From Agromyces allii (lineage in GTDB: Bacteria; Actinomycetota; Actinomycetes; Actinomycetales; Microbacteriaceae): a stretch of 64,000 bases of DNA. The stretch is taken from assembly GCF_009749385.1 (NCBI RefSeq), contig NZ_WBIN01000002.1, positions 372,001 to 436,000 on the forward strand, in the 5' to 3' direction. A program made the translations under genes and the position numbers. The notes under the pieces were generated by a model, which did not search any database, was not told where the DNA came from, and saw only the letters and a list, made by a program, of their open reading frames with translations. This document shows positions 28,484 through 51,154 of the stretch, piece after piece (position 1 is the stretch's first letter; each line of letters opens with the position of its first letter).

Positions 28484-28490
28484 TCGGCGA

Positions 28491-28508: not shown

Positions 28509-28513
28509 CTCGT

Positions 28514-28554
28514 GAGAAGGCCCCCGGTGTCAGTGCGACACCGGGGGCCTTCTC
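28514..28554. terminator. Strong terminator of the fab operon
   Basis: A perfect 18-bp stem (28514-28531 and 28537-28554, sequence GAGAAGGCCCCCGGTGTC and its complement) with a 5-base loop. It lies between convergent fabF and DUF3145 and can serve both. Confidence 0.92.
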
Positions 28555-28642
28555 GTCGACGGCCGGCGGGTTTCGTCCGTGCGTTCACCGGGAGCGACTC
28601 TCCGACGATCGCGGGACGCCAGCACGCGGGCCGAGGCTCTGC

Positions 28643-29164: not shown

Positions 29165-29438
29165 CTCCGTCTCCGTTCTCGAGGTGCGTCTTCCCCTACG
29201 ACCTCGGGAGCCACGGATGGCTGGATATTCGATTGTGGACGTGAACCGTCACCGGCGATTATGCCGCGGATCCGGCGTTCTGACAAGGTTCGCGCCGCGC
29301 GTGGCCGGTCGCCGAGCGCGCGGGCCACGGAACTGTATGCTCGGTGAAACGTTCCGTGCTCGTCGACTTCGCTCCGTCGCCCGAGTTCGGGATCCCGTTC
29401 CGAGTCGTTCCGAAGTCCCGTCCGCCGAAGGAGGCGTC

Positions 29439-30158: not shown

Positions 30159-31954
30159 CTCTCGACGACCGCGAGATCGAGCGGGAACTCGATCGGGAAC
30201 CCGCCGAAGAGCAGCCGACCCGCCGTGACGGCCGACGCGCGCACGGCGTCGGCGACCGCCTCGGCGTGCTCGACCGGCGTGTGCACGATGATCTCGTCGT
30301 GGAGGAAGTACACGAGGTGCGGTGCGCGATCGAAGACGGGTCCGGATGCCGCGGCCGGCCGCCGCGCCGACGTCTCCGTGTCGGCGACGCCGAGCGCGTG
30401 CAGCCGCGCCCTCAGGTCGGCCATCCAGCACAACGCCCACTCGGCGGCGCTGCCCTGCACGACGAAGTTGCGGGTGAACCGACCCCAGTCGCGCGCCGAG
30501 GACCGGGCCCGGCGCTCGTCGGCGGCGCTCGCATCGGGCTGGCTGGCACTCGCCTGGGTGGCGCGCCACTCGGCGGGCGGCAGCGGTGACGAACGCCCGA
30601 GGAGCGTGGTGACCTGCAGGCCGCGCTCGCCGTCGCGGGCGGCTGCGTCGACGAGCCGCATGGCCTTCGGGAAGGCACGCGCGAGCCGCGGCACGAGCCG
30701 GCCGCTGTCACCGGTCGTCGCGCCGTACATGGCGCCGAGGATCGCGATCTTCGCCTCGTCGCGCGTCGCCACGACGCCCGAGTCGACGAGTCCGCGGTAG
30801 AGGTCGCGCCCGTGACCCGCACGCTCCATGGCCTCGTCGCGGGACATGCCCGTGAGCACGCGCGGCTCGAGTTGGGCCGCGTCGGCGACGACGAGGGTCC
30901 ACCCGGGGTCGGCGACCACCGCGCTGCGCACGAGCTTCGGCAGTTGCAGCGCGCCGCCGCCGGAGGTCGCCCAGCGGCCGGTCGCGGTGCCGCCCGGCAC
31001 ATACTCGGGGCGGAACCGGTCGTCGCGCACCCATTCCTCGATCCAGACCCAGCCGTTCGCGCTCAGGAGCCTCGCGAGCTTCTTGTAGGCCAGCAGCGGC
31101 TCGATGGCCGGGTGCTCGTGCTCCTGGAGTTCCCACTTCGAGGTGGACGAGGTCTGCACGCCCGCCGTGCGCAACGCGCGCAGCACGTCGACCTGCGAGT
31201 CGAGGTTGAGCGCCGGCGCCCCGAGTTCGGCACGCACGATCGCGGCAGTCTGCTCCATGCGCGCGGGCTTGCGCCCCGACGCCGGGCGGGGCCCGAGCTC
31301 GGCCTCGAGCACGGACTCGTGCACGCGTCGACTCCACGGCAGGCCCGCGGCCCGCATCTCGGCGCCGATGAGCGCCCCGGCGGACTCGGCGGCGGTCAGG
31401 AGGCGCAGGGCGGCCGGGGCGCCGGCGGCCTCGATGAGCCCGAGCTGCCGGCGGTACTCGTCGGCGACGGATGCCGCCGACGGGCGCCCGCCCGGGGCAT
31501 CCGCCCGCTCGGAGGGGACCGATTCGGCGCCGTCGCCACCGGCGACGGACCCGCGCGCGTCGTCGAACCCGTCGAGATCGAACAGCGGCTCATGGCGCTG
31601 CGCCGCAGGTGACGGCTCGAACGCCGCCTCGGCCATCGTCGGGCCGGGCGGCAGCCACGCCGGCGCCGTGGGCGCGCCATGAGCGCGGGCGTCGGCCGTG
31701 AACGTCGAGTGGTCGAGGATCGCCCCGCACAGGCGCAGATCGTGGCACCGCGCGAGCCGGACCCCGCTCGCGAGCAGCGCCGGGTACCACTGCCGGGTGT
31801 CGGCCCACACCCAGCGCGGGCCGTGCTCGCGCTCGAGGCGCTCGAACATCGGGGCGGATGCCGCGTGCTCGGCCTCGGCGAGGGGCGCGCCCGGCCGGTC
31901 GGGGTCGACGAACTGCACGCGACCGCCGTCGCCGACGCCCACGGCGATCTGCAT
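30137..31954 (-). CDS. DNA polymerase I-like protein (family A polymerase, degenerate exonuclease)
   Basis: A 605-residue family A polymerase without the 5' nuclease domain, a type often annotated bifunctional 3'-5' exonuclease/DNA polymerase in Actinobacteria. Polymerase motif A (VVADAAQLEPRVL), motif B (RDEAKIAILGAMYG) and motif C (HDEIIVHTP) keep the metal Asp, Arg, Lys, Tyr and HDE. The N-terminal third shows no clear DxE exonuclease motif. The O-helix Phe position (NFG in Pol I) reads ILG. It is smaller than PolA and likely a repair or lesion-tolerance enzyme rather than the main PolA; that is inference. It diverges from the zinc-ribbon nuclease-like gene. Confidence 0.85.
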   Translation of the reverse strand: MQIAVGVGDGGRVQFVDPDRPGAPLAEAEHAASAPMFERLEREHGPRWVWADTRQWYPALLASGVRLARCHDLRLCGAILDHSTFTADARAHGAPTAPAWLPPGPTMAEAAFEPSPAAQRHEPLFDLDGFDDARGSVAGGDGAESVPSERADAPGGRPSAASVADEYRRQLGLIEAAGAPAALRLLTAAESAGALIGAEMRAAGLPWSRRVHESVLEAELGPRPASGRKPARMEQTAAIVRAELGAPALNLDSQVDVLRALRTAGVQTSSTSKWELQEHEHPAIEPLLAYKKLARLLSANGWVWIEEWVRDDRFRPEYVPGGTATGRWATSGGGALQLPKLVRSAVVADPGWTLVVADAAQLEPRVLTGMSRDEAMERAGHGRDLYRGLVDSGVVATRDEAKIAILGAMYGATTGDSGRLVPRLARAFPKAMRLVDAAARDGERGLQVTTLLGRSSPLPPAEWRATQASASQPDASAADERRARSSARDWGRFTRNFVVQGSAAEWALCWMADLRARLHALGVADTETSARRPAAASGPVFDRAPHLVYFLHDEIIVHTPVEHAEAVADAVRASAVTAGRLLFGGFPIEFPLDLAVVESYASADA

Positions 31955-35217: not shown

Positions 35218-36474
35218 ATGGCTGCAGATGAGCGACGAGTCGATACCGCCGCCGGAATCGCGATCCCGGCGGTCACGACCGAGCCCCACGACTGGAGGCC
35301 GCGGAATCCCGCGGGCTTCTCCAACGCCGAGGTGCTGCGGCAGACCGGGCGCTACGAGTCGGCACGCACCGCCGCGATCGAGCACTGGTCTCCCCGCCTC
35401 TCGGCCATCGACATCGCCGACATCGAGGAGGCCGCACTCGCCCTGGCCGACTTCGACCGCTACGCGCTCATCAAGCTCGGTGCCGAGCACCCCGCGCTCG
35501 GCCCGATGTCGGCGATCCTGCTGCGCACCGAGAGCGCCTCGAGCAGCCAGATCGAACAGCTCACCGCGTCGGCACGGCAACTCGCCCTCGCCGAGATCGA
35601 CGAGGGCGACCGGGCGAACGCAGCGACCGTCATCGGCAACGTCCGCGCGATGGAGGCCGCGCTCGCCCTCTCGGAGCGGCTGGATGCGACCAGCATCCTC
35701 TCGATGCACCGCGAGCTGCTCAGTCGTCAGCCCGGATTCGAAGATCAGGCCGGACGCTTCCGCGACGAGCTCGTCTGGATCGGCGGCCGAGACAATGCCG
35801 GCCCACGAGGCGCCGACTACATCGCTCCGCAGCCCGGCCAGGTTCCCGGCGCGATCCTGGATCTCGTCGCCTTCGCCGGCCGCGTCGACCTGCCCGCGTT
35901 GCTCCAGATCGCCGTCGCCCACGCGCAGTTCGAGTCGATCCACCCGTTCGTCGACGGCAACGGCCGCACCGGCCGTGCCCTCGCGCAGGCGCTCCTGCGG
36001 GGCAAGGGCCTCTCGACGCACACGACCGTGCCGCTGTCCGCCGGACTCCTCACCGACGTCGTGCGCTACTTCGACGCGCTCCGCGCCTTCCGGGCCGGGG
36101 ATGCCGGCCCGATCGCGCACAGCTTCGCGGACGCCTCGCGGTTCGCCGCGACATCCGGCCGCACGCTCGTCGACGCGCTCTCGGAGCAGTTGGAGGAATC
36201 CCGCGAGAAGCTCGCGGGCGTCCGCTCGGTCTCCCGCGCCTGGACGCTGCTCCCCCGCCTGATCGCCCAGCCGATCGTGAACAGCCGATACCTGACGCAG
36301 CAGCTCGGGTACAACGACGTGACCGCGAAGCGGACGATCGAGACCCTCGTCGACCGCGGCATCCTCGTCGAGCGATCCGGACGCGCACGCAATCGGGTCT
36401 GGCAGCATAGCGGCATCCTCGATGCCCTCGACGAGTACGCCGCGGGCATCAGGCGATCGACCCGACACCGGTGA
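35218..36474 (+). CDS. Fic-family AMP transferase-like protein with winged helix
   Basis: Fic proteins transfer AMP or related groups to proteins. This 418-residue protein has the full active-site motif HPFVDGNGRTGR (242-253), so it is probably catalytically competent. An upstream inhibitory-helix-like motif SSSQIEQ (108-114) keeps the Glu (E113) that clamps the active site in class II Fic proteins. A C-terminal winged helix (NSRYLTQQLGYNDVTAKRTI, about 350-400) suggests DNA binding. The gene is preceded by a 34-bp AT-rich palindrome, pointing to autoregulation. No antitoxin partner gene is adjacent. Confidence 0.93.
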   Translation: MAADERRVDTAAGIAIPAVTTEPHDWRPRNPAGFSNAEVLRQTGRYESARTAAIEHWSPRLSAIDIADIEEAALALADFDRYALIKLGAEHPALGPMSAILLRTESASSSQIEQLTASARQLALAEIDEGDRANAATVIGNVRAMEAALALSERLDATSILSMHRELLSRQPGFEDQAGRFRDELVWIGGRDNAGPRGADYIAPQPGQVPGAILDLVAFAGRVDLPALLQIAVAHAQFESIHPFVDGNGRTGRALAQALLRGKGLSTHTTVPLSAGLLTDVVRYFDALRAFRAGDAGPIAHSFADASRFAATSGRTLVDALSEQLEESREKLAGVRSVSRAWTLLPRLIAQPIVNSRYLTQQLGYNDVTAKRTIETLVDRGILVERSGRARNRVWQHSGILDALDEYAAGIRRSTRHR

Positions 36475-37803: not shown

Positions 37804-37998
37804 TCAGCGCCCCGCCGAACCGCCTCGCTCGCCGCGCTGCACGAGCGAGCGCAGCACGAAGAAGACGACGACGGCGACCAGCGCCACGATCACGGCCTTC
37901 ACCAGGAACCACACGACGCTGAACACGACATCGACGAGGACCCAGGCGATGACGACCGCGGCGATGACGCCGAGCACGGTCCAGACGGTGCGACTCAT
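37804..37998 (-). CDS. Small two-helix membrane protein
   Basis: A 64-residue hydrophobic protein with two predicted membrane helices (about 6-28 and 30-52) and a basic tail (RSLVQRGERGGSAGR). I recognise no named family. It resembles the short hydrophobic proteins common in actinobacterial genomes. It lies downstream of the PHB-depolymerase-like gene, beyond that gene's terminator. Confidence 0.7.
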   Translation of the reverse strand: MSRTVWTVLGVIAAVVIAWVLVDVVFSVVWFLVKAVIVALVAVVVFFVLRSLVQRGERGGSAGR

Positions 37999-38016
37999 GT
38001 CTCGAGGCTATCCGAA

Positions 38017-38050
38017 CGGCCGCACGCCGATCTGCGGCGGCGTGCGGCCG
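38017..38050 (-). terminator. Terminator of the esterase gene
   Basis: A perfect 13-bp stem (38017-38029 CGGCCGCACGCCG; 38038-38050 CGGCGTGCGGCCG) with an 8-base loop, 31 bases beyond the esterase stop. Confidence 0.85.
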
Positions 38051-38081
38051 GAGGGGGACGCCTTACCTGGATTCCTCGGGA

Positions 38082-39413
38082 TCAACCGCAGGCGGCGACC
38101 TTCGTGTACGTGCCCGGCGCGGTCGCCCGGAGTGTCGTGACCGTCGCGTCGCCCTGGCCGAGGTAGTCGAGGGTTCCGAGCGCGTAGTAGGGGTTGTACG
38201 GATTCACGCCGTACGACGTCGCGCGGCCGGCCGCCTTGTGCTCGGCGTTCGTCGCGGTGATGCACGACGGATCGGGCGTCGGGGTCGGCGTCGGGGTGGG
38301 GGTCGGCGTCGGGGTCGGCGTCGGGGTCGGAGTCGGCGTGCCCGTGCGGTCGACGCGACGGTTGTTGGCGAAGAAGAACGACGTCACGTAGGCCGGGTAG
38401 TCGACGCTGTTCGCGGAGATGTAGGTGCCGCCGGCACCTGCGCCGGCCGGCCAGTTGTGCCCGAGCCCGGTGTTCTGCACGATCGACACGCGTGGGCCCG
38501 CGGCATCCGAGTACAGCGTGCCTGAGCCGTTCGTGTTCGCGCCCGCGAGCCCGGCGAGGCTGAAGGTCGACGACGTTCCCGCACCGTAGAGCTCGGCCAT
38601 GATCTGCCCGTTCAGCGTGTTGTACCCGGTGGCGACCGTCGAGTCGTTGCTGCCGTAGACCACCGAGGCCACCTGGGTCGAGAACGCACTCGAGGTCGAT
38701 CCGGCGAACGTGCGGCAGGTCGAGACGCCCTGCGCCTTCGAGACGGCGACGCTGCCGATCTGGCCCGACGTGGTGCCCACGGTCGGCCCGGCGTTGATGC
38801 CGATGCCGGCGAACACGTCGGGTGCGAGGCATCCCATGACCATCGTCTCGCCGCCGCCCGAGGACAGACCGGACACGTAGACCTGGTTCCCGTCGATGCC
38901 GAGCCCGGTACGCGAACGGAGCGCGCTCGCGAGGTCGAGCAGGTTGTCGTCGTGCCGCGACGGTGCGGTGCGGGAGTGGTTCGAGTCGTAGTAGTCCCAG
39001 CAGCCGAGGACCACGCCGCCGTTCGGCGCGTCGGGCAGCGCGACGACCATGCCGTAGGCGTCGGCGGCGGCCGCCCAGTTGCCGGCCGTCTGGAGGTCGG
39101 ACGCCTTCTGCGCGCAGCCGTGGAGGCTCACCATGAGCGCACGACCGGCGGGCAGGGCGGCCGCGGTGGTCGGCGTGTAGAGCCGCACGCTCATGCCGGC
39201 GATCGTCTCGGTGGTCCAGGTGCCGGTCGTCGTCGACCCGCCGGTGCCTCCCCCGCCGCCTCCACCGGTGTTCGTGCAGCCCGGAAGGGTCTCGAAGCCG
39301 GGCGGGCAGGTGATCGCCTGCGCGGCGGGACTGAGGGCGAAGACGCCGCCCGTGATGAGAAGGGCGGCGGCGAGTGTCGCGGTGATCCGCGCTCGGATGG
39401 ACCTGTGGTGCAT
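38082..39413 (-). CDS. Secreted PHB depolymerase-family esterase
   Basis: An exported alpha/beta hydrolase of the polyhydroxybutyrate depolymerase/feruloyl esterase (LpqC-like) family. It has a signal peptide (about 1-33, ending SPAAQA), the oxyanion motif VSLHGCAQ, nucleophile S184 in GLSSGGG, a likely catalytic D257 (YGSND) and H319 (GLGHNWP). A (Thr-Pro)n linker of about 25 residues leads to a 60-residue C-terminal module ending VAACG, perhaps a substrate-binding domain. The ATG at 39413 was chosen over the ATG two codons upstream because GAAGGAG is six bases away instead of touching it. The polymer attacked is not determined. Confidence 0.88.
   Translation of the reverse strand: MHHRSIRARITATLAAALLITGGVFALSPAAQAITCPPGFETLPGCTNTGGGGGGGTGGSTTTGTWTTETIAGMSVRLYTPTTAAALPAGRALMVSLHGCAQKASDLQTAGNWAAAADAYGMVVALPDAPNGGVVLGCWDYYDSNHSRTAPSRHDDNLLDLASALRSRTGLGIDGNQVYVSGLSSGGGETMVMGCLAPDVFAGIGINAGPTVGTTSGQIGSVAVSKAQGVSTCRTFAGSTSSAFSTQVASVVYGSNDSTVATGYNTLNGQIMAELYGAGTSSTFSLAGLAGANTNGSGTLYSDAAGPRVSIVQNTGLGHNWPAGAGAGGTYISANSVDYPAYVTSFFFANNRRVDRTGTPTPTPTPTPTPTPTPTPTPTPDPSCITATNAEHKAAGRATSYGVNPYNPYYALGTLDYLGQGDATVTTLRATAPGTYTKVAACG
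38274..38340 (-). repeat. Tandem 6/12-bp repeats encoding the Thr-Pro linker
   Basis: GGCGTC and GGGGTC alternate about a dozen times, giving a coding microsatellite within the esterase gene. Copy number may vary among strains through slippage, changing linker length without frameshift. Confidence 0.8.
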
Positions 39414-39551
39414 CGGCATCTCCTTCGATGGCAGCGATGTGGCACGTCGTCGTGCTGGATCGCACGGTACCTGACGACTGATTCACCTGCCATGTTCAGT
39501 TCCGCACCCTGCGTGTGCGCGCATGCACACGCGTGGCCGCCGACGACCTCC

Positions 39552-42500
39552 TCAGGCCGACGGCAGCTCCACCGAGTCGCCGTAGACGATGCGGCGGCCG
39601 CGGAGGCGCTGGAGGAGCATGAAGGGCGGCAGTCCGATGGAGTCGCCCTCGTGCAACTCGTACTCGGCGAGGCGCACGCGAACGCGATCGCCGGGTGCGC
39701 GCTCGGGCACCGACACCGCGCCCGCCCACTCGACCGCCCCGAACCGCTCGGCGCGCAGGGCGCCCAGTCCGAGCCGCACATCGAGCTCGACGGGCTCGCC
39801 GATCCGTTCCCAGTCCAGGTCGGTCGGGGCATCCGCCCGCAGCCGCTCGACCCAGGCCTCGACTCGCCGCGACGCCCGGATCTCCGCAGCGAGGTTCGGC
39901 AGTTCGCGCGCGTGCTCCGGCACGCCGACGGGACCGGCGAGGGTGATGACGACGGCGAGTCCGTCGGGCGTGGCGACGAACGTCGCGTCACGTCGCGGCA
40001 GCGGTTGCACGAAGTCGGCCTTCACGACGGGCGACAGCTCGACGCCCGCGAGCGAGTGGGGCTGGTAACGGGCGAGGGCGAGCTGCACCATCGGCGTGTA
40101 CGCGTCTCCGGACTCGAGCGCGATGTCGCAGAACCACAGTCGCCGCTCGGCATCGAACTCGGGCTGATGGCCGACGACCGTGACCCGGTCGTCGACCTCG
40201 GCGAGCCGCACGGTGCCGACGGCGGTACGGCGCGGAAGGTGATGCGCGAACGGCCCATACGGCACCGGCTCGCCGGCGAACACCGGGTCGGCGCCCCACG
40301 AACTCGTGAACCGACGCCCCTCGGGCCCGGTCGAGGAGAACAACGGGAGGAACTCGGTGACGAGCCCGCTCGCGACATCCGTCTCGATCGCGGAGATCAA
40401 GTCGGGGTCGAGCGCACGACGGGCGACCGTCTGCAGTTCGGATTCGACGAGGAACCGGTCGAAGGCACCGCGGGCCCTGGCGGCACGCGGTCGAGGACCG
40501 GCCCGACGCAACTCCGCCGCCACCGACGCCACATGCGCCTGGAACCGGGCCGCCGGCGCCGCGTCGGGTTCGCCGCCGACGCCGCCCCGGCGTTCGAGCA
40601 CCTGCTCGGCCCAGGCATCGGCGAGGGCGCGCGATGCGACGTCGCCCAGCACACCGCGCTCGACGTCGATCGGCCAGGTGATCCACGGCTGCCGCGCGAG
40701 GACGACCCCGAGCAGCTCATCCGGTCCGCTCGAGAACCACGGCCGGCCGAGGTAGACGCGGAGGCCGCCGGCCGTCCGCACCCGCCGCACGCCGAACGTG
40801 CCGTCGACGTCGAGTCGTTCGGTGCGCCACTCCCAGTAGGGCATGAGATAGCGAACCTCAGGCGGCGCCGGGCGGGCGCTGGAGGGCACGTCGACGCGCA
40901 GCGTCGGCCCGGTCGAGGTGATGAGTTCTGGCTGGTCGGTGATCTGGGGCGGGAAGTATTCGCGGAACCGGGTCGTCGCGGTCGGCGTGTAGTCGACCCA
41001 GCGGTGCCGGGTGTCGCCGAACTCGTGGCGTGCGGCGTGGCGCGGTCCGAACGGCCCGGCGGCCGGGCCGTTCACCGGCCAGAGCTGCGCGTCGACCTCG
41101 CTCGGCTCCAGCAGGAAATCGGTCACGTGGGCCTGCTTGCCCTCCTCGCGCGGTGCGGGTTCGAGGATGTCGTCGACGGGGTCGTTCCATGCGGCCGTGA
41201 TGTCGAGACGCCCGGTGCTGGCGGCGTGGTTGTGCACGACACCCGGCAGGAGCGAGAACGTCGCGCCGAGATCGCGCGGCGTGCCGGCCGAGAGCCGGAT
41301 CTCGGGCGGTTCGAGCGGCATCTCGACGGCGTGCACGAGTGTGAGGTCGGCGAACGGGCTGATCATCCAGTGCAGGCCACGGCGAACGGTCTCGAGCTGG
41401 GCGGGCGTGGCCGGCGCCTGGTGCTCGTCGATCAGATGCCAGATCCGCATGAGCTCGATGTCGGGCAGGTCGAGGAAGGAGCTCAGCCGCACCGTCTGCA
41501 TGGTCGCCTTCGGAAGCGACACCGTGAGCGTGCGCGCCGCGGCGTCGAACGCGGGAAGGTCGGCGCCCTCGACGATGCGCAGGAGCACCGGCTGCCGGTC
41601 GAACCAGGTCGCCGCGGCATCCGAATCGCCCGGCCAGCGGAGCAACCGAGTCGCCGGCGCGCCGACCACCTCGCCGCCCGCGTCGCCGGCGTCGCCGGCA
41701 CCCCCGCCCGCCACGTCGCCCGGCAGGCTCGTGAAGGAGATGCCGCGCGCGACCGGGTCGGGCAGGTACGGGAGCGTCAGAGCGCGGTTCGCATGCACGA
41801 CGTACTGGCCGTCGGGCAGCACCTGCTCCTTCGTGCCGTCGAGCACGGTCGGCGGGCCGGAGGGGTTCACCGCTCGCGCGCCGGGCAGCGTGAGGTAGCT
41901 GCCCGCCTCGCGGCCCGCGATCGCGAACTGCGCGGCGACGGCCGCCGGGTCGCCGGCGAGCGCGGCGTCGAACCGTCCGTGCGTCTCGGCGAGCTGCACG
42001 CTGCCGATCGGCGCGGCGAGGTTTCGCTCGTTCTCGACCCGGTAGACGACGCCGAGGTCTCCGGATGTCTCGTGCCCGGGCAGGTCCCGCACGCGCGCGA
42101 GCGCGACGTAGTCGGCGACCGGCACGTCGAGGGTCGACCGGATCACCATCCGCATGAGCGATTCGCCCTCGGTGTACTCGGTCAGCGGCACGACCGCAGG
42201 CGAGGGCACCGGTTCCCAGCGCTGGTAGGTGCGCGGCAGGTCGCGTTCGTGCGCCTCGTCGAGCTGGTCGTCGGGAATCGACCCGCCCGACAGGTCGACG
42301 GCGCGGATGCGCACCCGGTACTGCCGTCCGAACCGCAGCCGCGGCAGCGAGCCGGGCAGCACCCGGAACCGTGCGGCGAGCGGGAACCCGGTGTCGGCGA
42401 CGTCGGGCGGGTTCTCCTCGGGGTCGACGGGGTGCGTCTCGTCGACGACCTTTCCCGGGCGCTTCACCGCGAGCGACCAGCCGTCCCACCCGGCGAGCGT

Positions 42501-43997
42501 CTCGTGGAGCCATTGGTCGGCGGTGGGGTCGGCCTCGTTGCTCGACGTGCTCGCCGCCTTCAGATAGCCCTCGTCGGGCTTCGGCTGCACGGGGAGCGGT
42601 TGCCGTGGCCCGGCTGGCGCGCCGGGCTCGACGAGTTCGTAGTCGCCCTCGCGCCGGTGCAGCGACCGACACTCGCGCGGGTCGGCGCTCTCGTCGCGGA
42701 TGTCGACGCGCCACCCCCGCGTCACGTCGGCGGCGTGCAGCACGGCGGATGCCCCGGCCGTGCGCTGCTGCTCGTGATCGGCGGATCGGTCGAACTGCTC
42801 GACCAGCGCGGCCGATCGTTCCTGGCGCACGACGATGAGGCCGGTGGAGCGCAGCGCGGGAAGCGACGAGGCGTCGTCGGTCATCGAGGGCGCCTGGTTG
42901 TTGCGGGCCGCACTGTCGTTCAGGTCGCGGTCGGTGCGCACCAGCCCATCGAGGAGGTTGGCGACCTTGAGCGCCGCGCCGTCGGGGTCGAGCTGGTCGA
43001 GCCCGAATCGGCGGGTTTCGTCGATGACGAGGCTGCCGTCGACGATGTCCGGGAGTTCGACGCGCGAGGACGGCGCCCACACCCGGTCGGAGTAGTGGGC
43101 GTTCGTGATGGGGCGGGCGTCGGCGCCAGCGACGAGTCCGTCGACGAGCGGGCCGCCGGCTCCGGCGGCCACGACCTGGATCGTCGTCTGCTCGAGGATG
43201 CCGCCGTCATCGGGAATCCAGAGGTCGACGGCGAGCCCGAGCCGCCTCAGCAGTTCGGGGAAGTCGGCGCATCGGGCGACGAAGCTGTGGAACTCGGGCG
43301 CGACGGGCTCCGGCGGCTTCGCGGTGGACGTCGCCTCGTCCCACGGGTCGTCGGTGCGGTCGTAGAACGCCCGGGCCGCGGCGAGCGCGACGGCCGGTCG
43401 TTGGGCCGGCGGCACGCTGTCGATGCGAAGGAATCTGCCCTGCTGGTCGGATCCCGCACGCAGGTCGGCGAGGTATCGCTTGATCTCCCGGCGATGGCCC
43501 TGCTCCCACCGCTCGAGGATGCTCCGCGGCGACTGGAGCTCGCGGATCTTGCCGGCCAGTGGGCCGCGGGTGATCGCCGGGAACGACGACGGGCTCGTGA
43601 CCGCGATCGTCGCGTACAGGTCGGTGACGGCGGCCGCGACCTCGGCGACGGGGTAGGAGTGCACGACGGCCTGCTCGAAGTGCTGGAACGGGGCTTCGCC
43701 GACGGCCGTGCGACCGAACAGTCGCTCCCAGAGGTCGGGGTCGGGCGGGACGGGATCGTCGAGCGGCATCCCGTCGACCTGGCCGATGCCCGCGACGTCG
43801 AAGACCCATCGCGCTTCGGCCACGGCCTTGGGCCAGTTGGCGAACGCCTCGAAGGCGGGCAGTTCGACGAGCACGCCCGTGCCGGGGGGCTCGTCGGTCG
43901 ACAGCTTCGGCGTGACGAAGACGGTCACCTTCAGTTGTCCGTTCTCGGGGAGCCTGCCGGCGGGGATGGCGGTGAAGACCGCACGCTCGGTGACCAT
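39552..43997 (-). CDS. Giant protein of unknown function (second of a coupled pair)
   Basis: A 1481-residue protein that I cannot assign. It has no signal peptide or membrane helix. The composition suggests many beta-sandwich modules: a segment near residue 565 (YRVRIRAVDLSGG) reads like a fibronectin-type strand, and segments near 650 (YRVENERNLAAPIG) and 1080 (GGLRVYLGRPWF) are well-formed strands. A Gly/Ala/Asp-rich hinge lies near 765. It begins one base after the stop of the upstream giant gene (TGA-C-ATG), so the two are translationally coupled and probably form one complex. Codon use matches the neighbours, and there is no sign of decay over 4.4 kb. Confidence 0.85.
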   Translation of the reverse strand: MVTERAVFTAIPAGRLPENGQLKVTVFVTPKLSTDEPPGTGVLVELPAFEAFANWPKAVAEARWVFDVAGIGQVDGMPLDDPVPPDPDLWERLFGRTAVGEAPFQHFEQAVVHSYPVAEVAAAVTDLYATIAVTSPSSFPAITRGPLAGKIRELQSPRSILERWEQGHRREIKRYLADLRAGSDQQGRFLRIDSVPPAQRPAVALAAARAFYDRTDDPWDEATSTAKPPEPVAPEFHSFVARCADFPELLRRLGLAVDLWIPDDGGILEQTTIQVVAAGAGGPLVDGLVAGADARPITNAHYSDRVWAPSSRVELPDIVDGSLVIDETRRFGLDQLDPDGAALKVANLLDGLVRTDRDLNDSAARNNQAPSMTDDASSLPALRSTGLIVVRQERSAALVEQFDRSADHEQQRTAGASAVLHAADVTRGWRVDIRDESADPRECRSLHRREGDYELVEPGAPAGPRQPLPVQPKPDEGYLKAASTSSNEADPTADQWLHETLAGWDGWSLAVKRPGKVVDETHPVDPEENPPDVADTGFPLAARFRVLPGSLPRLRFGRQYRVRIRAVDLSGGSIPDDQLDEAHERDLPRTYQRWEPVPSPAVVPLTEYTEGESLMRMVIRSTLDVPVADYVALARVRDLPGHETSGDLGVVYRVENERNLAAPIGSVQLAETHGRFDAALAGDPAAVAAQFAIAGREAGSYLTLPGARAVNPSGPPTVLDGTKEQVLPDGQYVVHANRALTLPYLPDPVARGISFTSLPGDVAGGGAGDAGDAGGEVVGAPATRLLRWPGDSDAAATWFDRQPVLLRIVEGADLPAFDAAARTLTVSLPKATMQTVRLSSFLDLPDIELMRIWHLIDEHQAPATPAQLETVRRGLHWMISPFADLTLVHAVEMPLEPPEIRLSAGTPRDLGATFSLLPGVVHNHAASTGRLDITAAWNDPVDDILEPAPREEGKQAHVTDFLLEPSEVDAQLWPVNGPAAGPFGPRHAARHEFGDTRHRWVDYTPTATTRFREYFPPQITDQPELITSTGPTLRVDVPSSARPAPPEVRYLMPYWEWRTERLDVDGTFGVRRVRTAGGLRVYLGRPWFSSGPDELLGVVLARQPWITWPIDVERGVLGDVASRALADAWAEQVLERRGGVGGEPDAAPAARFQAHVASVAAELRRAGPRPRAARARGAFDRFLVESELQTVARRALDPDLISAIETDVASGLVTEFLPLFSSTGPEGRRFTSSWGADPVFAGEPVPYGPFAHHLPRRTAVGTVRLAEVDDRVTVVGHQPEFDAERRLWFCDIALESGDAYTPMVQLALARYQPHSLAGVELSPVVKADFVQPLPRRDATFVATPDGLAVVITLAGPVGVPEHARELPNLAAEIRASRRVEAWVERLRADAPTDLDWERIGEPVELDVRLGLGALRAERFGAVEWAGAVSVPERAPGDRVRVRLAEYELHEGDSIGLPPFMLLQRLRGRRIVYGDSVELPSA

Positions 43998-43998
43998 G

Positions 43999-46900
43999 TC
44001 AGGCTCCCGCTTCGGCGGCGAACGCGCCGCAGTACTCGGCCCACGGGTCGCGGGCGGCCCCGACCTCGTCGGTGTACGGACCCATGGTGTCCAGGAAGGT
44101 GGGATCGCCGCCGGAGCCGGCGAACTGCTTCTCGCAGCTCACCGAGACCGAGAACGAGAGGAAGCACACCGACACCTCGATCGAGATCGACGCCTTGCCG
44201 ACGGCCTTCGCGCTGTCGTCGCCCGGCCCGGGTTCGGGACCGGAGATCGACCGGTAGCTGAGCTCGAGGTAGAGCTCGATCGATGCGGAGATCAGCCCGA
44301 GCACGTCGACCTCCCCGCGGGCGCGGAAGTAGCCGGTGAGCTGCACGCTCTGGGTGTCGCCGTCGATCTCGAGGCGGAAGTAGATGCCCGCCATGACCGA
44401 CAGGCTTCCGGATGCCACGACGAAGCTCATCTCGACGGCGGCACCGAACTCGAACGCCGCCTCGATGACCTTGAGGCCCTTCGGGGAGATCGTGATGGCG
44501 AAGAAGCCGCCCCCGGCGAAGAACGCGACCTGCAACCGGAACGGGTTCTCACGGGTCGCGAAGAAGAACCGGAACTCGAGGGATTCGCCGATGAACGGCA
44601 CGGAGAGCTCGGCGCCGACGTGGATGTTCGTGAGGGCGAAGACGCCGACGGCGAGATCGGGGATCTCGAGGTCGAACCCGGCCTTGAGCCCGCTGGCGGC
44701 GACGTCGAGGTAGGGCGGGTCGCTGAACCCGTCGAACGGGATGATCTCCTTCAGCGTCTCGACGAACGCCAGCGGGCCGAGGAACTCGATGCCCTGGGGG
44801 CGCCCCTCCTTGCCGTCGGCGAGTTCGACGTTCACGTCGGTCTTGCGCCCCGGCGCGACCGAGAACTCCATGACGGTGACGTGGATGGCGATGAACTGCG
44901 TGCTGCCGAGCAGCGTCACGGTGAACGGCGGCAGCGAGCACGAGACGAGCGACTCGGGCACTCCCCCGTGGAGCGGCGCCTGCACCTCGGCGACGAGGCG
45001 CAGCATCCGGTCGCCCTCGGGTTGGAAGACCGGCGGGGTCACGCCGCCGGGCGCCCACGGCACGAGTTCGGTCGACCAGTCGAGCCTGGCGCTCACCTGT
45101 TCGGGCAGGAGCGCACCCGTGGCGAAGGCCTGGATCTGGTCGGCGAGGGGTCCGGCCTGGGCCACCAGGTCGGCGAGCCGGCGGAGCAGTCCGAGCGCAC
45201 GCTCGAGGTCGGGGCGCGGAATCGGCAGGTCGGCACCGGTCGCGCCGAGCGCGTCGGCGAGGGTCTTCGCGGCCGTGCCGATGCCGGCGAGGATGCCGGC
45301 GAAGTCCTGCGGCGGGTTGGGCGGCTGCGCCACGAGTGCGAGCGCGTCGGTGAAGTCCTCGCCTCGGGCCAGGAGGTCGGCGGCGGCCTGCTGCACGGCC
45401 GCACCCTGCGCGGGGAGTGCGCCGGCCTGCTGCGTGAGGAAGGCGCGGGCTTCGTTCACCGACTGCCCGAGTCCGACGACCGCGTTGACGGCCTGGGTGA
45501 CGAACGCAGGCAGCGGGCTGCCGGTCGCGGGCAGCAGGTCGGAGAGCGGCAGGATGCCGAACAGCTTCGCCGCATCGAGCCCGAACATGCCGCCGACGTC
45601 GAAGCCCGCGGCGTCGGACGCGAGCGCGGCGAGGTCTCCGCCGACCGGTCCGACCCGTCGTGCGAGCGCGGACACCTCGACGCTCGGACTCACGAATCCG
45701 CCGGACTTCTGCGACTGCGTCGAGAACCCCATGGTCGGCACGTCGCCCGGAGCGATGGGCGCGCCGTCCGCCTTCGCGAGCTGGAGGAAGAGGCCACCCT
45801 CGTTGCCCGTGTGCGCGGGACCGGTGCCGACGCCCGCAGTCCGGTAGGCGGTCGCGTAGGTCAGCGCCAGCGGTTCGGTCTGCCCGGTGAACGCCGACAT
45901 CGCCGGCACCGGCGCCCGGGCGACCCGCATGACGGGCAGCACGAAGTTCACGGCGCGGTCGCTCGTCGCCGTGTCGAACTCGGCATCGAAGCGGATGTCG
46001 GTGGTCGCCAGCGTCGTGTCGTCGGGGTCGAGCGGCGGGGCGTACGCGACCCGCTGCCCGCCGAGGTCGTACGTCGTGTTCGCGAGGTTCGCCGCGATGC
46101 GCGCCATGTCGCGGCCCGCCGGATCGGTGAAGACGGTCTTCTCGACGAACACGAGCGGGCCCTCCCACTCGACGAGCCGGTTCGAGATGTCGTTCGCGAG
46201 GAACCGGAACCGGAACGGCACCTGCCCCGGCACGGGCGAACCGCCGACGGCCCCGTCGACGGAGGCGACCTCCGGCACGAAGATCTGGCCCTTGGCCGGC
46301 GGCGCTCCCGGGATACCCGACGAGAGCTTCACCGGGGCGGCGAGCGGTGGCGTCGACGCGGTCAGGATGCGCACCCAGCGGAACGGCATCCGGTTGTCGA
46401 ACGTGGCCTTCCCCGAAGCGAGGAATCGGCGCTCGGGCTGGCGCACGATGACGAACAGCCGCTGGTAGAGCGTCGCCCGACCGTCGTCCTTGACCCGGCG
46501 CTCGGTGATCTTCACGAGCGAGGCCCGGTGCCCGAACGGCAGCAGCACGCCCTGATAGACGACCTTGACGTAGTGGTCGCGACCGAGCGTCGCGCGATGC
46601 CGCCACTCCTCGATCGAGAGCCCGTCGGCGCGCAGCGGGTCGAAGTGCGCCTCGAGGGCGAGCCACCCGCCGGCGGACGTGAGCATGAGATGCTCGACCG
46701 CCGCAGGCGCCGGCTTGTACCGCGGCCATCGATGGTTCGAGGTCAGGTGCACGAGCTGCATGCGGTCGCGCACCGACAGCGTCGCCCGGAACGGCCGCAG
46801 CCGCTCGGCCGGCGGCGCGGCAGCCTGATCCCCGAAGTCCTCCTCGGGGAATGCGGCAGCGCCCTGGGCCGGGCCGTTGCCGTCGGTGAAGTCGCGCGTC

Positions 46901-48033
46901 CAGACTGCGCGCACGGTGCGACCGGCCGCCTGCTGCTCGTCGACCGGAGGCGCGGCCTGCGGATCGAGGTCGGCTGCGGCATCCGTTCGGGAGGCGAGCC
47001 TGGAGTGCCAGAGTTCGACGCGACCGTCGTGATCGACGGGGTCGAGCGCATGGGTGAACGCCCCGCGCGACGGCGGACTGAGCTGCAGCCGCCACGGCAG
47101 TTCGAGTGCGGTCTCGGTCGAGGCCGGCTCTCGCGGGATCGGCGGCCGCAGGTCGAGCGGGAAGCGCGGCCCGAGTTCGACGCCCGCACGCACGTCGGTC
47201 GTCACGGCCGACACGGCGGACGTCGCGCCGAACCGGGTCTCGAGCTCGGCCGCCGTGCGCCGGAGCCTGGCGACCTCGGAGAGGTCGGTGAGCGCGACTC
47301 CCGCGTCGATGATCCTGCCGACGGCGGCCGCGCGACGAGCAGGCGGCAGGACGACCACCCCACGAGCCCGCTCCGCTCCCGCACGACGCCCGAACCGTCG
47401 ACGGGCGGCGACGCCGACCTCGCTCACGCGGTCGACGACCGAGGTGATCGCACCCAACTGCTCGGCCAGGTCGAACCAGCGGATGATCGCCGGAGCGCCC
47501 TCGGCGTGCGGCACGACGCTGAGCGGAAGGACGCGCATGGCGTGCAGGAGCCCTGCCTCGGTGTAGGGCACGCGTTCGGTCGTCACCGTGTACGCGATGC
47601 GGCTGCTCCTCGCGATGCGCGCCTCGACGGGATACGTCGGAGGTTCGGAGCCGCCGGGGAGCTTGACGCGCTTCTGCTCCACCGGTGACACCGGCGCCTC
47701 GGTCTTGAACGTGCTCTCCGGCCCGGCCGCGTCGAAGAACGCCCGCTCGAGCAGATGCTGCGGCCCCACGTCCGCGACGAGGAACGCGGGCCGCTCGGGC
47801 GTCCGGCGCACGAGATGCGGTCGGCCGTCGACATCGACCCGGTCGAGCCCGATGAACCGGAACTCGATGCGGAGCAGGTCTTCGGGCCTGAAGACGGCGA
47901 CCCGCGGCAACGACTCCGCCGGTGCGGCCTGCCCGCCGATCTCGAGCACCTCGCCGAACGGCAGTTCGACCCGTTCGGCCCGCGCGAAGACGCGCCCCAT
48001 CGCCGCGAGCAGATTCGGATCGACGCCGGCCAT
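43999..48033 (-). CDS. Giant protein of unknown function (first of a coupled pair)
   Basis: A 1344-residue protein of unrecognised family. The N-terminal 800 residues look beta-rich. Residues about 820-980 are Ala/Gln-rich amphipathic helix (for example QSVNEARAFLTQQAGAL). Residues about 1125-1265 are a run of alternating hydrophobic/polar strands (VGVFALTNIHVGAELSVPF, AAFEFGAAVEMSFVVASGSL). The tail has paired cysteines (VCFLSFSVSVSCEKQF) and a short acidic end. No signal peptide is seen. The ATG at 48033 was chosen because GAGGGG is six bases upstream; the longer open frame lacks support. The 5' leader contains a strong hairpin. Confidence 0.85.
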   Translation of the reverse strand: MAGVDPNLLAAMGRVFARAERVELPFGEVLEIGGQAAPAESLPRVAVFRPEDLLRIEFRFIGLDRVDVDGRPHLVRRTPERPAFLVADVGPQHLLERAFFDAAGPESTFKTEAPVSPVEQKRVKLPGGSEPPTYPVEARIARSSRIAYTVTTERVPYTEAGLLHAMRVLPLSVVPHAEGAPAIIRWFDLAEQLGAITSVVDRVSEVGVAARRRFGRRAGAERARGVVVLPPARRAAAVGRIIDAGVALTDLSEVARLRRTAAELETRFGATSAVSAVTTDVRAGVELGPRFPLDLRPPIPREPASTETALELPWRLQLSPPSRGAFTHALDPVDHDGRVELWHSRLASRTDAAADLDPQAAPPVDEQQAAGRTVRAVWTRDFTDGNGPAQGAAAFPEEDFGDQAAAPPAERLRPFRATLSVRDRMQLVHLTSNHRWPRYKPAPAAVEHLMLTSAGGWLALEAHFDPLRADGLSIEEWRHRATLGRDHYVKVVYQGVLLPFGHRASLVKITERRVKDDGRATLYQRLFVIVRQPERRFLASGKATFDNRMPFRWVRILTASTPPLAAPVKLSSGIPGAPPAKGQIFVPEVASVDGAVGGSPVPGQVPFRFRFLANDISNRLVEWEGPLVFVEKTVFTDPAGRDMARIAANLANTTYDLGGQRVAYAPPLDPDDTTLATTDIRFDAEFDTATSDRAVNFVLPVMRVARAPVPAMSAFTGQTEPLALTYATAYRTAGVGTGPAHTGNEGGLFLQLAKADGAPIAPGDVPTMGFSTQSQKSGGFVSPSVEVSALARRVGPVGGDLAALASDAAGFDVGGMFGLDAAKLFGILPLSDLLPATGSPLPAFVTQAVNAVVGLGQSVNEARAFLTQQAGALPAQGAAVQQAAADLLARGEDFTDALALVAQPPNPPQDFAGILAGIGTAAKTLADALGATGADLPIPRPDLERALGLLRRLADLVAQAGPLADQIQAFATGALLPEQVSARLDWSTELVPWAPGGVTPPVFQPEGDRMLRLVAEVQAPLHGGVPESLVSCSLPPFTVTLLGSTQFIAIHVTVMEFSVAPGRKTDVNVELADGKEGRPQGIEFLGPLAFVETLKEIIPFDGFSDPPYLDVAASGLKAGFDLEIPDLAVGVFALTNIHVGAELSVPFIGESLEFRFFFATRENPFRLQVAFFAGGGFFAITISPKGLKVIEAAFEFGAAVEMSFVVASGSLSVMAGIYFRLEIDGDTQSVQLTGYFRARGEVDVLGLISASIELYLELSYRSISGPEPGPGDDSAKAVGKASISIEVSVCFLSFSVSVSCEKQFAGSGGDPTFLDTMGPYTDEVGAARDPWAEYCGAFAAEAGA

Positions 48034-48074
48034 GTGCTGCCCCTCACCGCGTGCGCACGCCCGACACCTGTCAC

Positions 48075-48094
48075 GGCGAGCGAAGACGCTCGCC
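48075..48094 (-). other. Hairpin in the leader of the giant gene pair
   Basis: GGCGAGCG and CGCTCGCC pair over 8 bp with a four-base loop (TCTT on the transcribed strand), about 40-60 bases before the start codon. A TAGCGT -10 candidate lies just upstream at 48137-48132. It may stabilise or regulate the message. Confidence 0.5.
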
Positions 48095-48153
48095 GGGGGC
48101 GCCGGACGGCCCGACGCGGTCGAGCGCGTCAACGCTACTCTCCGAGCTTCCGG

Positions 48154-48207
48154 GCGGCGGCCCCCGAACGGGGGAGGGCGAGAGCGGACCGGAGCACGGG
48201 CCGCCGC
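48154..48207 (-). terminator. Terminator after the histidine kinase gene
   Basis: Outer arms GCGGCGGCCC (48154-48163) and GGGCCGCCGC (48198-48207) enclose the sequence; an alternative inner hairpin is CCCCC-GAAC-GGGGG (48161-48174). It would separate the two-component operon from the giant genes downstream. Confidence 0.55.
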
Positions 48208-48225
48208 CGCACCGTCCGACCGCGG

Positions 48226-49593
48226 CTACTCGCTTGCGCCGGCGATCGGCGGCAGGACCACGACGACCGTGAGTCCTTCGCCCGGGCGATTGTCGAGTCG
48301 GATGTCTCCCCCGGCGCTCTTCACGATCGCGTCGACGATGGCGAGCCCGAGTCCGACGCCGTTGCTTCCAACCCTGGATGCGTCGGCTCTGCTGAACCGG
48401 TCGAGCGCAGTCGGAGCGAACGCGGGATCGAGCCCGCCGCCGGTGTCGGCGACCGAAAGCGTCAGGTCGCCGCCGTCGAGCCGCAACGAGATCTCTACGC
48501 TGCCCTCGTCACGCACCGCGCGGAGGGAGTTGTTCGCGAGGTTGTCGACGAGTCGACCGAAGTCCTCGGCGCGGACGCCGTAGCGGAGTCCGCTCGGCCA
48601 GGGGCCGTTGAAGCTCCGGTACGAGACCACCACGTCGGCGCCCACGACTCGGGCCCGTTCGACGGCGTCGGCCGTCTCGCGCTCGAGCTCGGGCGCCGAC
48701 GACGCACCCGCACGACCGACCGCATCGATCTCGGAGAGCTCGAGCAACGACGAGACCAGGCGGGAGAGCCGCATGACGTTGCGCTGGGCACCCCGCACAT
48801 CGGAGAGCATCTGGTCGACCGACGCGGATTCGGCGATCGCCACCTGGAGCTGCGTGTTAACGAGCGCGAGCGGGGTGCGCAGTTCATGACTGGCATCGGC
48901 GACGAACTGGCGCTCCCTCGCGGCCGAGGCGCGCAGCCGTTCGACCAGGTCGTTGAGCGTTCGAGCGAGTTCGGCGATCTCGTCGTTCGTCTCGCCGACG
49001 GGCAGCAGCTCCGTCGTCGAGGACTCGCTCAGCTCCTCTGCGGCCGTACGGAGGCGCTCCACCGGCGCGAGCGAGATCGAGGTCAGCAGCCAGGCCGCCA
49101 CCGCGGTGCCCGCCGAGATGACGGCGAGACCGACGATCAGCAACAACCGCATCTGCGTGAGGATCGTGTTCTCGGCCTCGGCATGACGGGCGGCGACGAC
49201 CGTCCACTCGTCGGCACCGACCTGCAACTGCGTCGCCTTGACGAGGTACGGGGTGCCGTCGGCGTCGGCTTCGCTCGTCCGCTCGAGCGTCGTGAGCTGC
49301 GGGAGCATGTCGGACAGCGGGGACGGAAGCGAATCCACCGGTGTCGACCCGTCGGGGGCGACGACGGCGACGAGTTGCGACGGGCCCGGCGCGTCGAACG
49401 GCTCGGACGGCTCGGTCTCGAGTGCCACGACGTACGGGGCGCTGTCGCTGCGCAGCACGGCGGTCGTCCCCTCGCGCACGATGCGCTCGATCTGCGAGTT
49501 GATGACGATGCCGGCCGCGACCGAGATGAGGATCGCGATGAGGAGGCTGCCGCCCGCGATCCGGGCACGGATGCCGCGTCGCCCGCGCATCAC
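48226..49593 (-). CDS. Sensor histidine kinase
   Basis: A 455-residue membrane kinase: first membrane helix about 13-33, an extracytoplasmic sensor domain of about 120 residues, second helix about 150-172, a HAMP linker, the phosphoacceptor His in FVADASHELRTPL, and an ATPase domain with NLANNSLRAV (N box), DTGGGLD and GVGLGLAIVDAIV. The signal is unknown. Its start overlaps the response-regulator stop by four bases (ATGA), a tight operon with coupled translation. Confidence 0.93.
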   Translation of the reverse strand: MMRGRRGIRARIAGGSLLIAILISVAAGIVINSQIERIVREGTTAVLRSDSAPYVVALETEPSEPFDAPGPSQLVAVVAPDGSTPVDSLPSPLSDMLPQLTTLERTSEADADGTPYLVKATQLQVGADEWTVVAARHAEAENTILTQMRLLLIVGLAVISAGTAVAAWLLTSISLAPVERLRTAAEELSESSTTELLPVGETNDEIAELARTLNDLVERLRASAARERQFVADASHELRTPLALVNTQLQVAIAESASVDQMLSDVRGAQRNVMRLSRLVSSLLELSEIDAVGRAGASSAPELERETADAVERARVVGADVVVSYRSFNGPWPSGLRYGVRAEDFGRLVDNLANNSLRAVRDEGSVEISLRLDGGDLTLSVADTGGGLDPAFAPTALDRFSRADASRVGSNGVGLGLAIVDAIVKSAGGDIRLDNRPGEGLTVVVVLPPIAGASE

Positions 49594-50273
49594 GCCGGCG
49601 CCGGCACCGTGTCGAGTCGGAATCCGACGCCGCGCACCGTCGCGATGCGCACGCGGGCGTCGACCCGGTCGAGCTTGCGCCGCAGGTAGCTGACGTACTG
49701 GTCGACGACATTGGAGTCGATGTGCGCCGGAGTGTCCCAGACCTCCTCGAGGATCGCGGCGCGGGATCGGACCTCGTTCGGCTTGGCGGCCAGGCTCCAG
49801 AGCACGTCGAACTCGGTGCGACTCATTGGGATCTCCTGCTCGCCGGCCCGCACGCGATGGCGGTGCAGGTCGAGCGCGAGGCCGCCCACCTCGAGACGCA
49901 CCGGCGCATGGAGGGTGTCACGGCGCCGGACCGCCCGGATGCGCGCGGACAGCTCGGCGAGATCGAACGGCTTGACCATGTAGTCGTCGGCGCCCGAATC
50001 CAGACCTCGGACCCGATCGTCGACCGCGTGCCGTGCCGTCAGCAGGATGACGGCGATCGTCGAGTCGAACTCCTTGACCCTGCGGCAGAGCTCGAGACCC
50101 GACATGCCCGGGAGCATGAGGTCGACGACGGCGAGATCGAACCGCCCGTCGCGGACGGAGCCCATCGCGGCGATGCCGTCGTGCGCCTGCGTCACGTGAT
50201 GGCCCTCGGTCGCCAGACCACGGGCGAGGAGTTCGGTCATCTCCGTTTCATCGTCGACGACGAGGATGCGCAT
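49590..50273 (-). CDS. OmpR-family response regulator
   Basis: A 227-residue regulator with an intact receiver domain (acidic pair DDE near the start, phosphoacceptor D51 in VVDLMLPG, K in MVKPFD) and a C-terminal winged helix (SRTEFDVLWSLAAKPNEVRS; YVSYLRRKLD; TVRGVGFRLD). It is cotranscribed with the histidine kinase. A -10 candidate TAGGAT lies about 35 bases upstream (minus strand), with GAGAGGGG as ribosome-binding site. Confidence 0.94.
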   Translation of the reverse strand: MRILVVDDETEMTELLARGLATEGHHVTQAHDGIAAMGSVRDGRFDLAVVDLMLPGMSGLELCRRVKEFDSTIAVILLTARHAVDDRVRGLDSGADDYMVKPFDLAELSARIRAVRRRDTLHAPVRLEVGGLALDLHRHRVRAGEQEIPMSRTEFDVLWSLAAKPNEVRSRAAILEEVWDTPAHIDSNVVDQYVSYLRRKLDRVDARVRIATVRGVGFRLDTVPAPA

Positions 50274-50326
50274 CGCTCAACCCCTCTCGAACGGGTGCCC
50301 CCCATCCTAGAACCGGCCCTGCTCGG

Positions 50327-51154
50327 TCACGGGGTCGCGAGTCGGGGATCCTCGTCGACCAGCGCACGCCGGTCCGCCGCGATGCGGATGCTCATGAAGA
50401 TCACCAATCCGACGATCACGATCAGGAACACGGCGCTCGTCACGGTCGTGCCCAGACCCAGTCCGCCGTCGGCCACGGGCTGCGAGGCGAGATCGCCGAG
50501 CGAGGCTCCCAACGGCCGGGTGAGCACGTACGCGATCCAGAAGCAGACCACCGCGCTCGCGCGGAAGACGGAGTACGCCAGTGCGACGGCCGCGATGAGG
50601 ACCGCGAAGAGGATCGAGGCGACCAGGTAGCCGAGTCCCAGCGCCTCGGACACGAGGTCGCCCGCCGCCGTGCCGAGCGCGAACGTGAAGAGGATCGCCA
50701 GCCAGTAGTACGCCTCGCGTCGACGCGTGACGATGGAGTGGATCGAGAGCGTGCGTTCCCGCGCGTACCAGACCACGAAGGTCACGGCCAGGAGCGCCGA
50801 GAAGACGAGCGTCGAGAGCCCGAGCGGCACGCCCGCGGCATCCGTCAGGTTGTCGGTGATGAGCGTGCCGACGACGCTGATGAGCACGACCGTGATCCAG
50901 TACACGGCCGGGACGTACCGACGCGTCCAGAACTGCGCGCCGAGTGCGACGAGGAACAGCGCGCCCGTGACGATCGAGGTCGCGGTCAGGCCGAACCCGA
51001 GCGTGGCGTTCAGGTAGTCGGCCGCGGTCTCCCCGACCGTCGTCGAGAAGACCTTGATGATCCAGAAGGCGAGGGTGATCTGCGGCACCTTGCTGTACAG
51101 CAGGTCGCTGATGCGCGTCGATTCGACGGTGACGGGTGCGGTGTCGGTTGTCAT
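50327..51154 (-). CDS. Four-repeat membrane protein (COG4705-like)
   Basis: A 275-residue integral membrane protein with about eight helices, recognised as the COG4705 uncharacterised membrane-anchored family. Four internal repeats are visible, each an aromatic-Trp start and a Gly-x3/4-Asp motif: FWIIKVFSTTVGETAADYL, YWITVVLISVVGTLITDNL, YYWLAILFTFALGTAAGDL and FWIAYVLTRPLGASLGDL. The Asp in every repeat suggests ion or metal handling, but no substrate is established. It lies 50 bases upstream of a response regulator on the same strand, so it may be in that operon. Confidence 0.8.
   Translation of the reverse strand: MTTDTAPVTVESTRISDLLYSKVPQITLAFWIIKVFSTTVGETAADYLNATLGFGLTATSIVTGALFLVALGAQFWTRRYVPAVYWITVVLISVVGTLITDNLTDAAGVPLGLSTLVFSALLAVTFVVWYARERTLSIHSIVTRRREAYYWLAILFTFALGTAAGDLVSEALGLGYLVASILFAVLIAAVALAYSVFRASAVVCFWIAYVLTRPLGASLGDLASQPVADGGLGLGTTVTSAVFLIVIVGLVIFMSIRIAADRRALVDEDPRLATP

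What the first reader, a model, noticed from the sequence alone, without database searches (positions are those of the whole stretch)
39552..48033. Coupled pair of giant unassigned proteins (1344 and 1481 residues)
Two intact, adjacent, GC-typical genes span 8.5 kb. They are joined as TGA-C-ATG, so they are made together in near-equal amounts. Neither has a signal peptide, membrane helix or motif I can name. Both look built of many beta-sandwich modules, and the first adds an amphipathic helical region (about 820-980) and a strand-rich region (about 1125-1265) with paired cysteines near the end. Their size, coupling and leader hairpin suggest a large structural or secreted assembly. A two-component system lies just upstream on the same strand and a secreted esterase downstream. 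This is the best candidate here for an undescribed system; the link to neighbours is inference.
Basis: partly seen in the sequence, partly recalled or inferred. Interest (0 to 1): 0.78.

Follow-up and report, generated by a model that had tools for sequence, protein, structure and literature searches.

The report
Undescribed giant two-protein export module
Two giant neighbouring genes that match no family in the libraries searched sit side by side in 91 of 94 fetched relatives from several bacterial phyla; their proteins likely form one complex that is predicted to work outside the cell, where a predicted two-faced beta-barrel would hold on to membrane or other greasy material.

The parts
43999..48033 (-). 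gene A, 1344 aa, no known family
   Evidence: ORF; 105 homologues at E<=0.001, itself included; no hit in Pfam, NCBIfam, PHROGs, PADLOC
39552..43997 (-). gene B, 1481 aa, no known family; modelled residues 1-1110 are multi-domain, weakly FnIII-like
43995..44001 (-). junction TGA-C-ATG between A and B
   Evidence: sequence
44098..44727 (-). A residues about 1103-1312: predicted amphipathic beta-barrel/sheet, in the most conserved part
   Evidence: homologue model 862-1054 matches OmpG-type barrels; faces KD +2.34 vs -1.27; score 31.9 vs shuffle maximum 18.0; coordinates mapped from P0131 through the alignment, approximate
45121..45489 (-). A residues about 849-971: amphipathic helical region before the C-terminal beta part
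   Evidence: helices 629-746 of the P0131 model; the 60 of 195 PDB sequence matches shown are helical stretches at this place; mapped through conserved residues, approximate

Best explanation
A and B are a two-gene unit, kept side by side in 91 of 94 fetched loci and inherited together, whose products likely bind each other and are predicted to work outside the cytoplasm, with A's predicted C-terminal two-faced beta-barrel likely inserting into a membrane or holding lipid and B likely serving as an extended beta-sandwich scaffold on it. Shown: adjacency and order, congruent trees, twin-arginine leaders on A in 15 of 94 loci with none on B, strong face segregation of the predicted barrel strands, no known family. 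Inferred: A and B assemble in the cytoplasm as they are made from one message; in the lineages with a leader B leaves with A as a passenger; in lineages without one (the window's included) the route is unknown. A's N-terminus is where lineages attach different anchors (Tat leader, LysM), and in a minority of loci a hydrolase or oxidase gene is placed right next to the pair, which would make the complex a surface platform for acting on greasy or polymeric material.
Against: The window's A and B have no leader of any kind, and 79 of 94 A loci show no twin-arginine motif (a few of these are cut at their N-terminus by the contig end). A plus B (about 300 kDa by length) exceeds the 150 kDa Tat cargo size given in PMC6708511 (passage seen), so a passenger model may fail. 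Leader-bearing L060, L070 and L076 do not have the two extra Bacteroidota genes in the clusters. Of the trypsin-like neighbours, L019 and L078 gave 0 Pfam families; they are called so from TAGHC/GDSG-type motifs by eye, and L022 and L030 by clustering with them. The outer-membrane-like partner also has 0 Pfam families in L014 and L015. The control barrels, one annotated porin and three of those predicted outer-membrane partners, score only 12.9-17.2 on the amphipathic score, so the score does not recognise ordinary outer-membrane barrels and the membrane reading rests on the fold match alone. In one search the apolar face was defined as the more apolar parity of each strand, which inflates the contrast; the shuffles are the control for that. 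The apolar face is slightly more conserved than the polar one (entropy 1.17 vs 1.51), which would also fit a buried core. The co-varying Cys pair C1032/C1300 (48 both, 18 neither, 8 discordant) is not enriched in leader-bearing As (2 of 13 have both). 56 of 81 loci have no same-strand gene within 100 nt 3' of B, so partner enzymes are optional. No interface was predicted.
Confidence: 0.4

Rival explanations
1. A large pore-forming or delivery complex used against other cells: A's barrel would insert into a target membrane and the neighbouring proteases, lipases or amidases would be the payload.
For: Barrel fold match; variable enzymes beside some pairs, one with a Pfam peptidoglycan-binding domain (L043), one an amidase (L109); sporadic distribution, 8 of 296 class genomes and 2 of 150 family genomes, the own genome counted in both; a UniRef name for homologue P0207 mentions a Tc toxin domain.
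Against: No toxin family hit; P0207 matches 0 Pfam families up to E 10. 56 of 81 loci have no same-strand gene close behind B. No immunity-like partner was noticed, but this was not searched for systematically.
Confidence: 0.2
2. A lipid-carrying complex in the style of large lipid transfer proteins: the two-faced sheet lines a lipid cavity and the amphipathic helices cover it.
For: Foldseek's first two rows for A are microsomal triglyceride transfer protein (E 7.2e-5, prob 0.33) and the fourth is lipovitellin; the order beta-helical-beta is similar (recalled for MTP); patatin, lipase-like and PHB-depolymerase-like neighbours in single loci; the helical part matches apolipoproteins among many other helical chains.
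Against: TM-scores 0.09-0.10 and rmsd 30 A or more for these rows: no global superposition. The 50 VIA rows shown are membrane beta-barrels. No Pfam vitellogenin domain at E<=0.1 in 36 members. Helical matches are of the kind any coiled coil gives.
Confidence: 0.2
3. A soluble cytoplasmic structural pair: the barrel is an ordinary hydrophobic-core domain and the twin-arginine versions are lineage-specific add-ons.
For: No leader in 79 of 94 loci, window included; apolar face more conserved than the polar one; several adjacent enzymes have no Sec signal by eye.
Against: Leaders are found on A in three phyla, LysM motifs on A in L055 and L059, and the partners in seven Bacteroidota-type loci look exported; small residues (G, A, V) on the apolar face of a wide sheet would leave it unfilled (inference).
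Confidence: 0.2

Closest known systems
Gram-negative outer-membrane beta-barrels (OmpG, autotransporter beta domains)
   Different: It is one domain of a 1344-aa protein without signal peptide, in a lineage whose close relatives by name (Microbacterium, Agromyces) have no outer membrane (established knowledge); faces far more segregated than in the control porin
Large lipid transfer proteins (MTP, vitellogenin, apoB)
   Same: Amphipathic beta-sheet plus amphipathic helices; weak Foldseek similarity
   Different: No sequence family hit, no global superposition, bacterial, paired with B
Tat substrates that carry a leaderless partner out (hydrogenase/DMSO-reductase type, recalled)
   Same: Leader on one of two adjacent gene products in 15 of 94 loci
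   Different: Pair about 300 kDa, above the 150 kDa cited in PMC6708511; most lineages lack any leader
Extracellular contractile injection systems
   Same: LysM domains and hydrolase-type toxins also occur there (PMC8213781 passages)
   Different: Pair mostly stands alone; no sheath/tube/baseplate gene was noticed among the neighbours read, but no systematic scan was made

Membership tests
Outer-membrane beta-barrel protein | Antiparallel meander barrel fold | tested here: met
Outer-membrane beta-barrel protein | Sec signal peptide on the precursor | tested here: not met
   Window A starts MAGVDPNLLAAMGRVFARAERVEL, no signal-like apolar run (read by eye)
Outer-membrane beta-barrel protein | Inserted in an outer membrane by BAM | not testable with these tools
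   Needs cell fractionation; nearest relatives by name are monoderm actinobacteria
Large lipid transfer protein (vitellogenin/MTP/apoB) | Recognisable LLT/vitellogenin domain by sequence | tested here: not met
   0 Pfam families for A at E<=1; not among the 7 families found in 36 members at E<=0.1
Large lipid transfer protein (vitellogenin/MTP/apoB) | Lipid cavity walled by amphipathic sheets | tested here: inconclusive
   Sheet is amphipathic; Foldseek rows TM 0.09-0.10 only; no cavity could be measured
Tc toxin complex (name given by UniRef to homologue P0207) | Tc-family domains by sequence | tested here: not met
   P0207: 0 Pfam families up to E 10; A and B: 0 families. Fold-level relation not tested with a Tc structure
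Tat-exported protein | Twin-arginine motif followed by apolar run at the N-terminus | tested here: inconclusive
   Present in 15 of 94 A homologues; absent in the window's A
FnIII/complement-like multi-domain protein (for B) | Tandem immunoglobulin-like beta-sandwiches | tested here: inconclusive
Extracellular contractile injection system | Sheath, tube and baseplate genes in the same locus | not tested
   Neighbour genes were read by eye and only some scanned with Pfam
Anti-phage defence system | Match to a PADLOC model | tested here: not met
   0 families for A and B at E<=1

The most novel reading that the evidence does not exclude
A previously unrecognised class of bacterial two-protein machine in which bacteria without an outer membrane make an outer-membrane-type barrel, dock it on a giant beta-sandwich scaffold, and deploy it outside the cell as a lipid-handling or membrane-piercing platform onto which lineages clip their own anchors (Tat leader, LysM) and hydrolases.
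Probability: 0.25. Interest if true: 0.88.

Novelty: categorically new. Interest (0 to 1): 0.62.

Why it matters
A pair of 1300-1500-residue proteins kept together across several phyla, with 1891 proteins sharing A's C-terminal domain in one capped search, has no family name in the libraries searched and no paper found in the searches made, apart from passing mentions of one member, Rmet_4688, in metal-resistance work. If the barrel is real, it would be an outer-membrane-type fold used by monoderm bacteria, which bears on how such barrels fold and act without BAM and an outer membrane. The leader-bearing and leader-less versions make the export question directly testable.

Tried and rejected
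Rejected: the two-component system and esterase as members (immediate 5' gene differs in L004, L005, L006, L007, L010; immediate 3' gene differs in L005, L006, L007, L010, the contig of L004 ending inside B). The leader hairpin. Tc toxin membership from a UniRef name. Known family by Pfam, NCBIfam, PHROGs, PADLOC. Phage origin: no match for A in 50,697 phage records. PDB sequence search with A: the 60 of 195 matches shown are helical stretches; with B two weak odorant-binding matches (E 0.56 and 0.6). Foldseek for B against PDB gave nothing at E<=0.001 and against viral models three weak rows at E<=0.001, two of them named fibronectin type III and minor tail protein. No sigma-70-like promoter or terminator pattern in 37900-50400. 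The co-varying Cys pair as an export marker: not tied to leaders. In one search, seven Pfam families hit 36 A members at E<=0.1: Baculo_PEP_C in 3 (best E 2.2e-5, in the helical region as far as one search shows), the rest in one each, one of them the outer-membrane family PorP_SprF (E 0.054); none was taken further.

Limits: one search confirmed 217 stretches but kept 80 (79 distinct loci), so 94 loci is what was examined, not everything. L003/L005 and L016/L113 look like the same genes twice, and L047/L048 and L055/L056 are near-duplicates, so counts are of loci, not of independent events. 17 of 94 loci did not pass the length filter for the tree comparison. 13 of 94 loci were not evaluable for the 3' neighbour count, and my gene caller missed the protease-like gene in L031. 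The adjacency count uses 400 nt from the end of A's frame to the conserved start of B.

Full report
What is there. The two ORFs are as described: A 43999-48033 and B 39552-43997 on the minus strand, joined TGA-C-ATG. Gene calling with codon usage trained on A and B places them between a histidine kinase (48226-49590) and, 132 bp further 3', a PHB-depolymerase-like esterase (38082-39419) with a signal-like start. The own genome (4.36 Mb, 23 contigs) gave one match each for B and A.

No known family. A and B match nothing in Pfam, NCBIfam, PHROGs and PADLOC at E<=1. Of 36 aligned A homologues, seven Pfam families hit at E<=0.1, one in three members (Baculo_PEP_C), the others in one each.

Relatives. 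Protein searches returned 105 A homologues and 61 B homologues, the window's own counted, with candidate caps reached. A third search with A residues 1040-1344 returned 1891 proteins, 120 listed; this C-terminal part stays near 60% identical in homologues that are near 42% identical overall (compare). A scan of GTDB-species contigs confirmed 217 places and kept 80: mainly actinobacteria, with Bacteroidota, Chlorobiota, Kapabacteria, proteobacteria, a Nannocystis and a Thermoanaerobaculia by record title. It is sparse: 2 of 150 genomes of the window's family (query the window's A) and 8 of 296 of the class (query P0111, one of the eight a 72-residue match), the own genome counted in both; lower bounds. 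Plasmids: 15 of 72,556 records; phages: none of 50,697.

The pair holds together. I examined the 94 A loci fetched (L003-L088, L106-L113). In 91, B's conserved start lies within 400 nt 3' of A on the same strand. The other three: L061 (contig ends), L084 (A is split) and L088 (B is split). Gaps by my gene caller are mostly -4 to about 100 nt, commonly 1-13; larger values go with split genes or uncertain starts. Distances on the A and B trees agree, Mantel r 0.874 on 77 pairs, 0 of 2000 permutations as high.

Location. In 15 of 94 loci A begins with a twin-arginine motif and an apolar run: 11 Bacteroidota-type loci, one Agrobacterium plasmid, and three actinobacterial loci (contexts; scans; the 15 are my reading of these, after dropping L028, L042 and L035 as false). 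No B has one. In 14 of these 15 loci B's conserved domain begins close to a plausible start, leaving no room for a leader (by eye; B is split in L088). A of L055 (Williamsia) and of L059 (Mycolicibacterium) carries two LysM stretches. Seven Bacteroidota-type loci have the same two further genes beside the pair, in three gene orders: one secreted-looking protein (weak Ig-like hit in L012, RCC1 repeats in L047 and L053) and one that looks like an outer-membrane protein by eye (0 Pfam families in L014 and L015). Leader-bearing L060, L070 and L076 lack them in the clusters. Of 81 loci that could be evaluated, 25 have a same-strand gene within 100 nt 3' of B. Among these Pfam supports trypsin in L033 and L111, phosphoesterase in L036, GMC oxidoreductase in L035, tyrosinase in L055 and patatin in L083; L019, L022, L030 and L078 are trypsin-like by eye or by clustering (L019 and L078 gave 0 Pfam families), and L074 has an HExxH motif by eye. 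Thirty-five loci have an opposite-strand gene next and 21 a same-strand gene further off, so most pairs stand alone. The window's A and B have no leader: export of these two is an inference from relatives.

Mechanism. I commit to an exported A-B complex with a membrane- or lipid-contacting barrel on A, at 0.4. Shown: pairing, co-inheritance, leaders on A only, face segregation. Inferred: physical complex, passenger export of B, lipid contact, function of partner enzymes. The size of the pair (about 300 kDa) against the 150 kDa Tat cargo quoted in PMC6708511 (passage seen) is the main difficulty.

Literature. Nine searches found no description of the pair. The C. metallidurans member lies directly 3' of rpoQ-rsqA; PMC10304878 names Rmet_4688 in its Figure 3 legend for that region (passages), and PMC7019866 lists Rmet_4688 as hypothetical (passages). 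That A is Rmet_4688 follows from coordinates; that B is Rmet_4689 only from order.

Verdict. Novelty is at the level of family and pairing; parts use familiar folds.

Noticed in passing
window 35218-36474 (+): Intact Fic-domain protein (PF02661, E 1.1e-18) with a weak winged-helix-type hit near its C-terminus.
   Followed up: no
L088:12001-20988 and 27299-31440: Agrobacterium vitis plasmid carries a 2995-aa version of A with twin-arginine leader and a split B, a little before dpdE/dpdF genes (as annotated) and near transposases.
   Followed up: partly
L074:9233-22892: Nocardia abscessus has A-B, an HExxH protein (by eye), then a second, shorter A and the start of a second B.
   Followed up: partly
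L110, L111 (G392): One 2.4 Mb unnamed actinobacterial genome holds two copies of the pair, both As with twin-arginine leaders, one B followed at 30 nt by a trypsin with a weak fn3 hit.
   Followed up: partly
L112:13781-16424, L109:4579-5616: Look-alike proteins of about 250-345 aa follow B, three in tandem in L112; the two scanned have no Pfam hit.
   Followed up: no
L083:10691-14661: In Cupriavidus metallidurans the pair lies next to gigPABT and rpoQ-rsqA; strain BS1 lacks the island that ends at Rmet_4687 (PMC7019866 passages).
   Followed up: partly
L043:17930-19210, L055:17422-19194, L074:17474-18397: Genes behind B share a peptidoglycan-binding-like N-terminus without Sec signal (Pfam hit in L043 only, by eye in the others) in front of a metalloprotease-like, tyrosinase or HExxH part; a possible shared targeting domain.
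   Followed up: no
L049:17712-17981: 89-aa ORF with two chitin-binding-like motifs (recalled pattern, not scanned) 48 nt 3' of B in a Cellulomonas.
   Followed up: no
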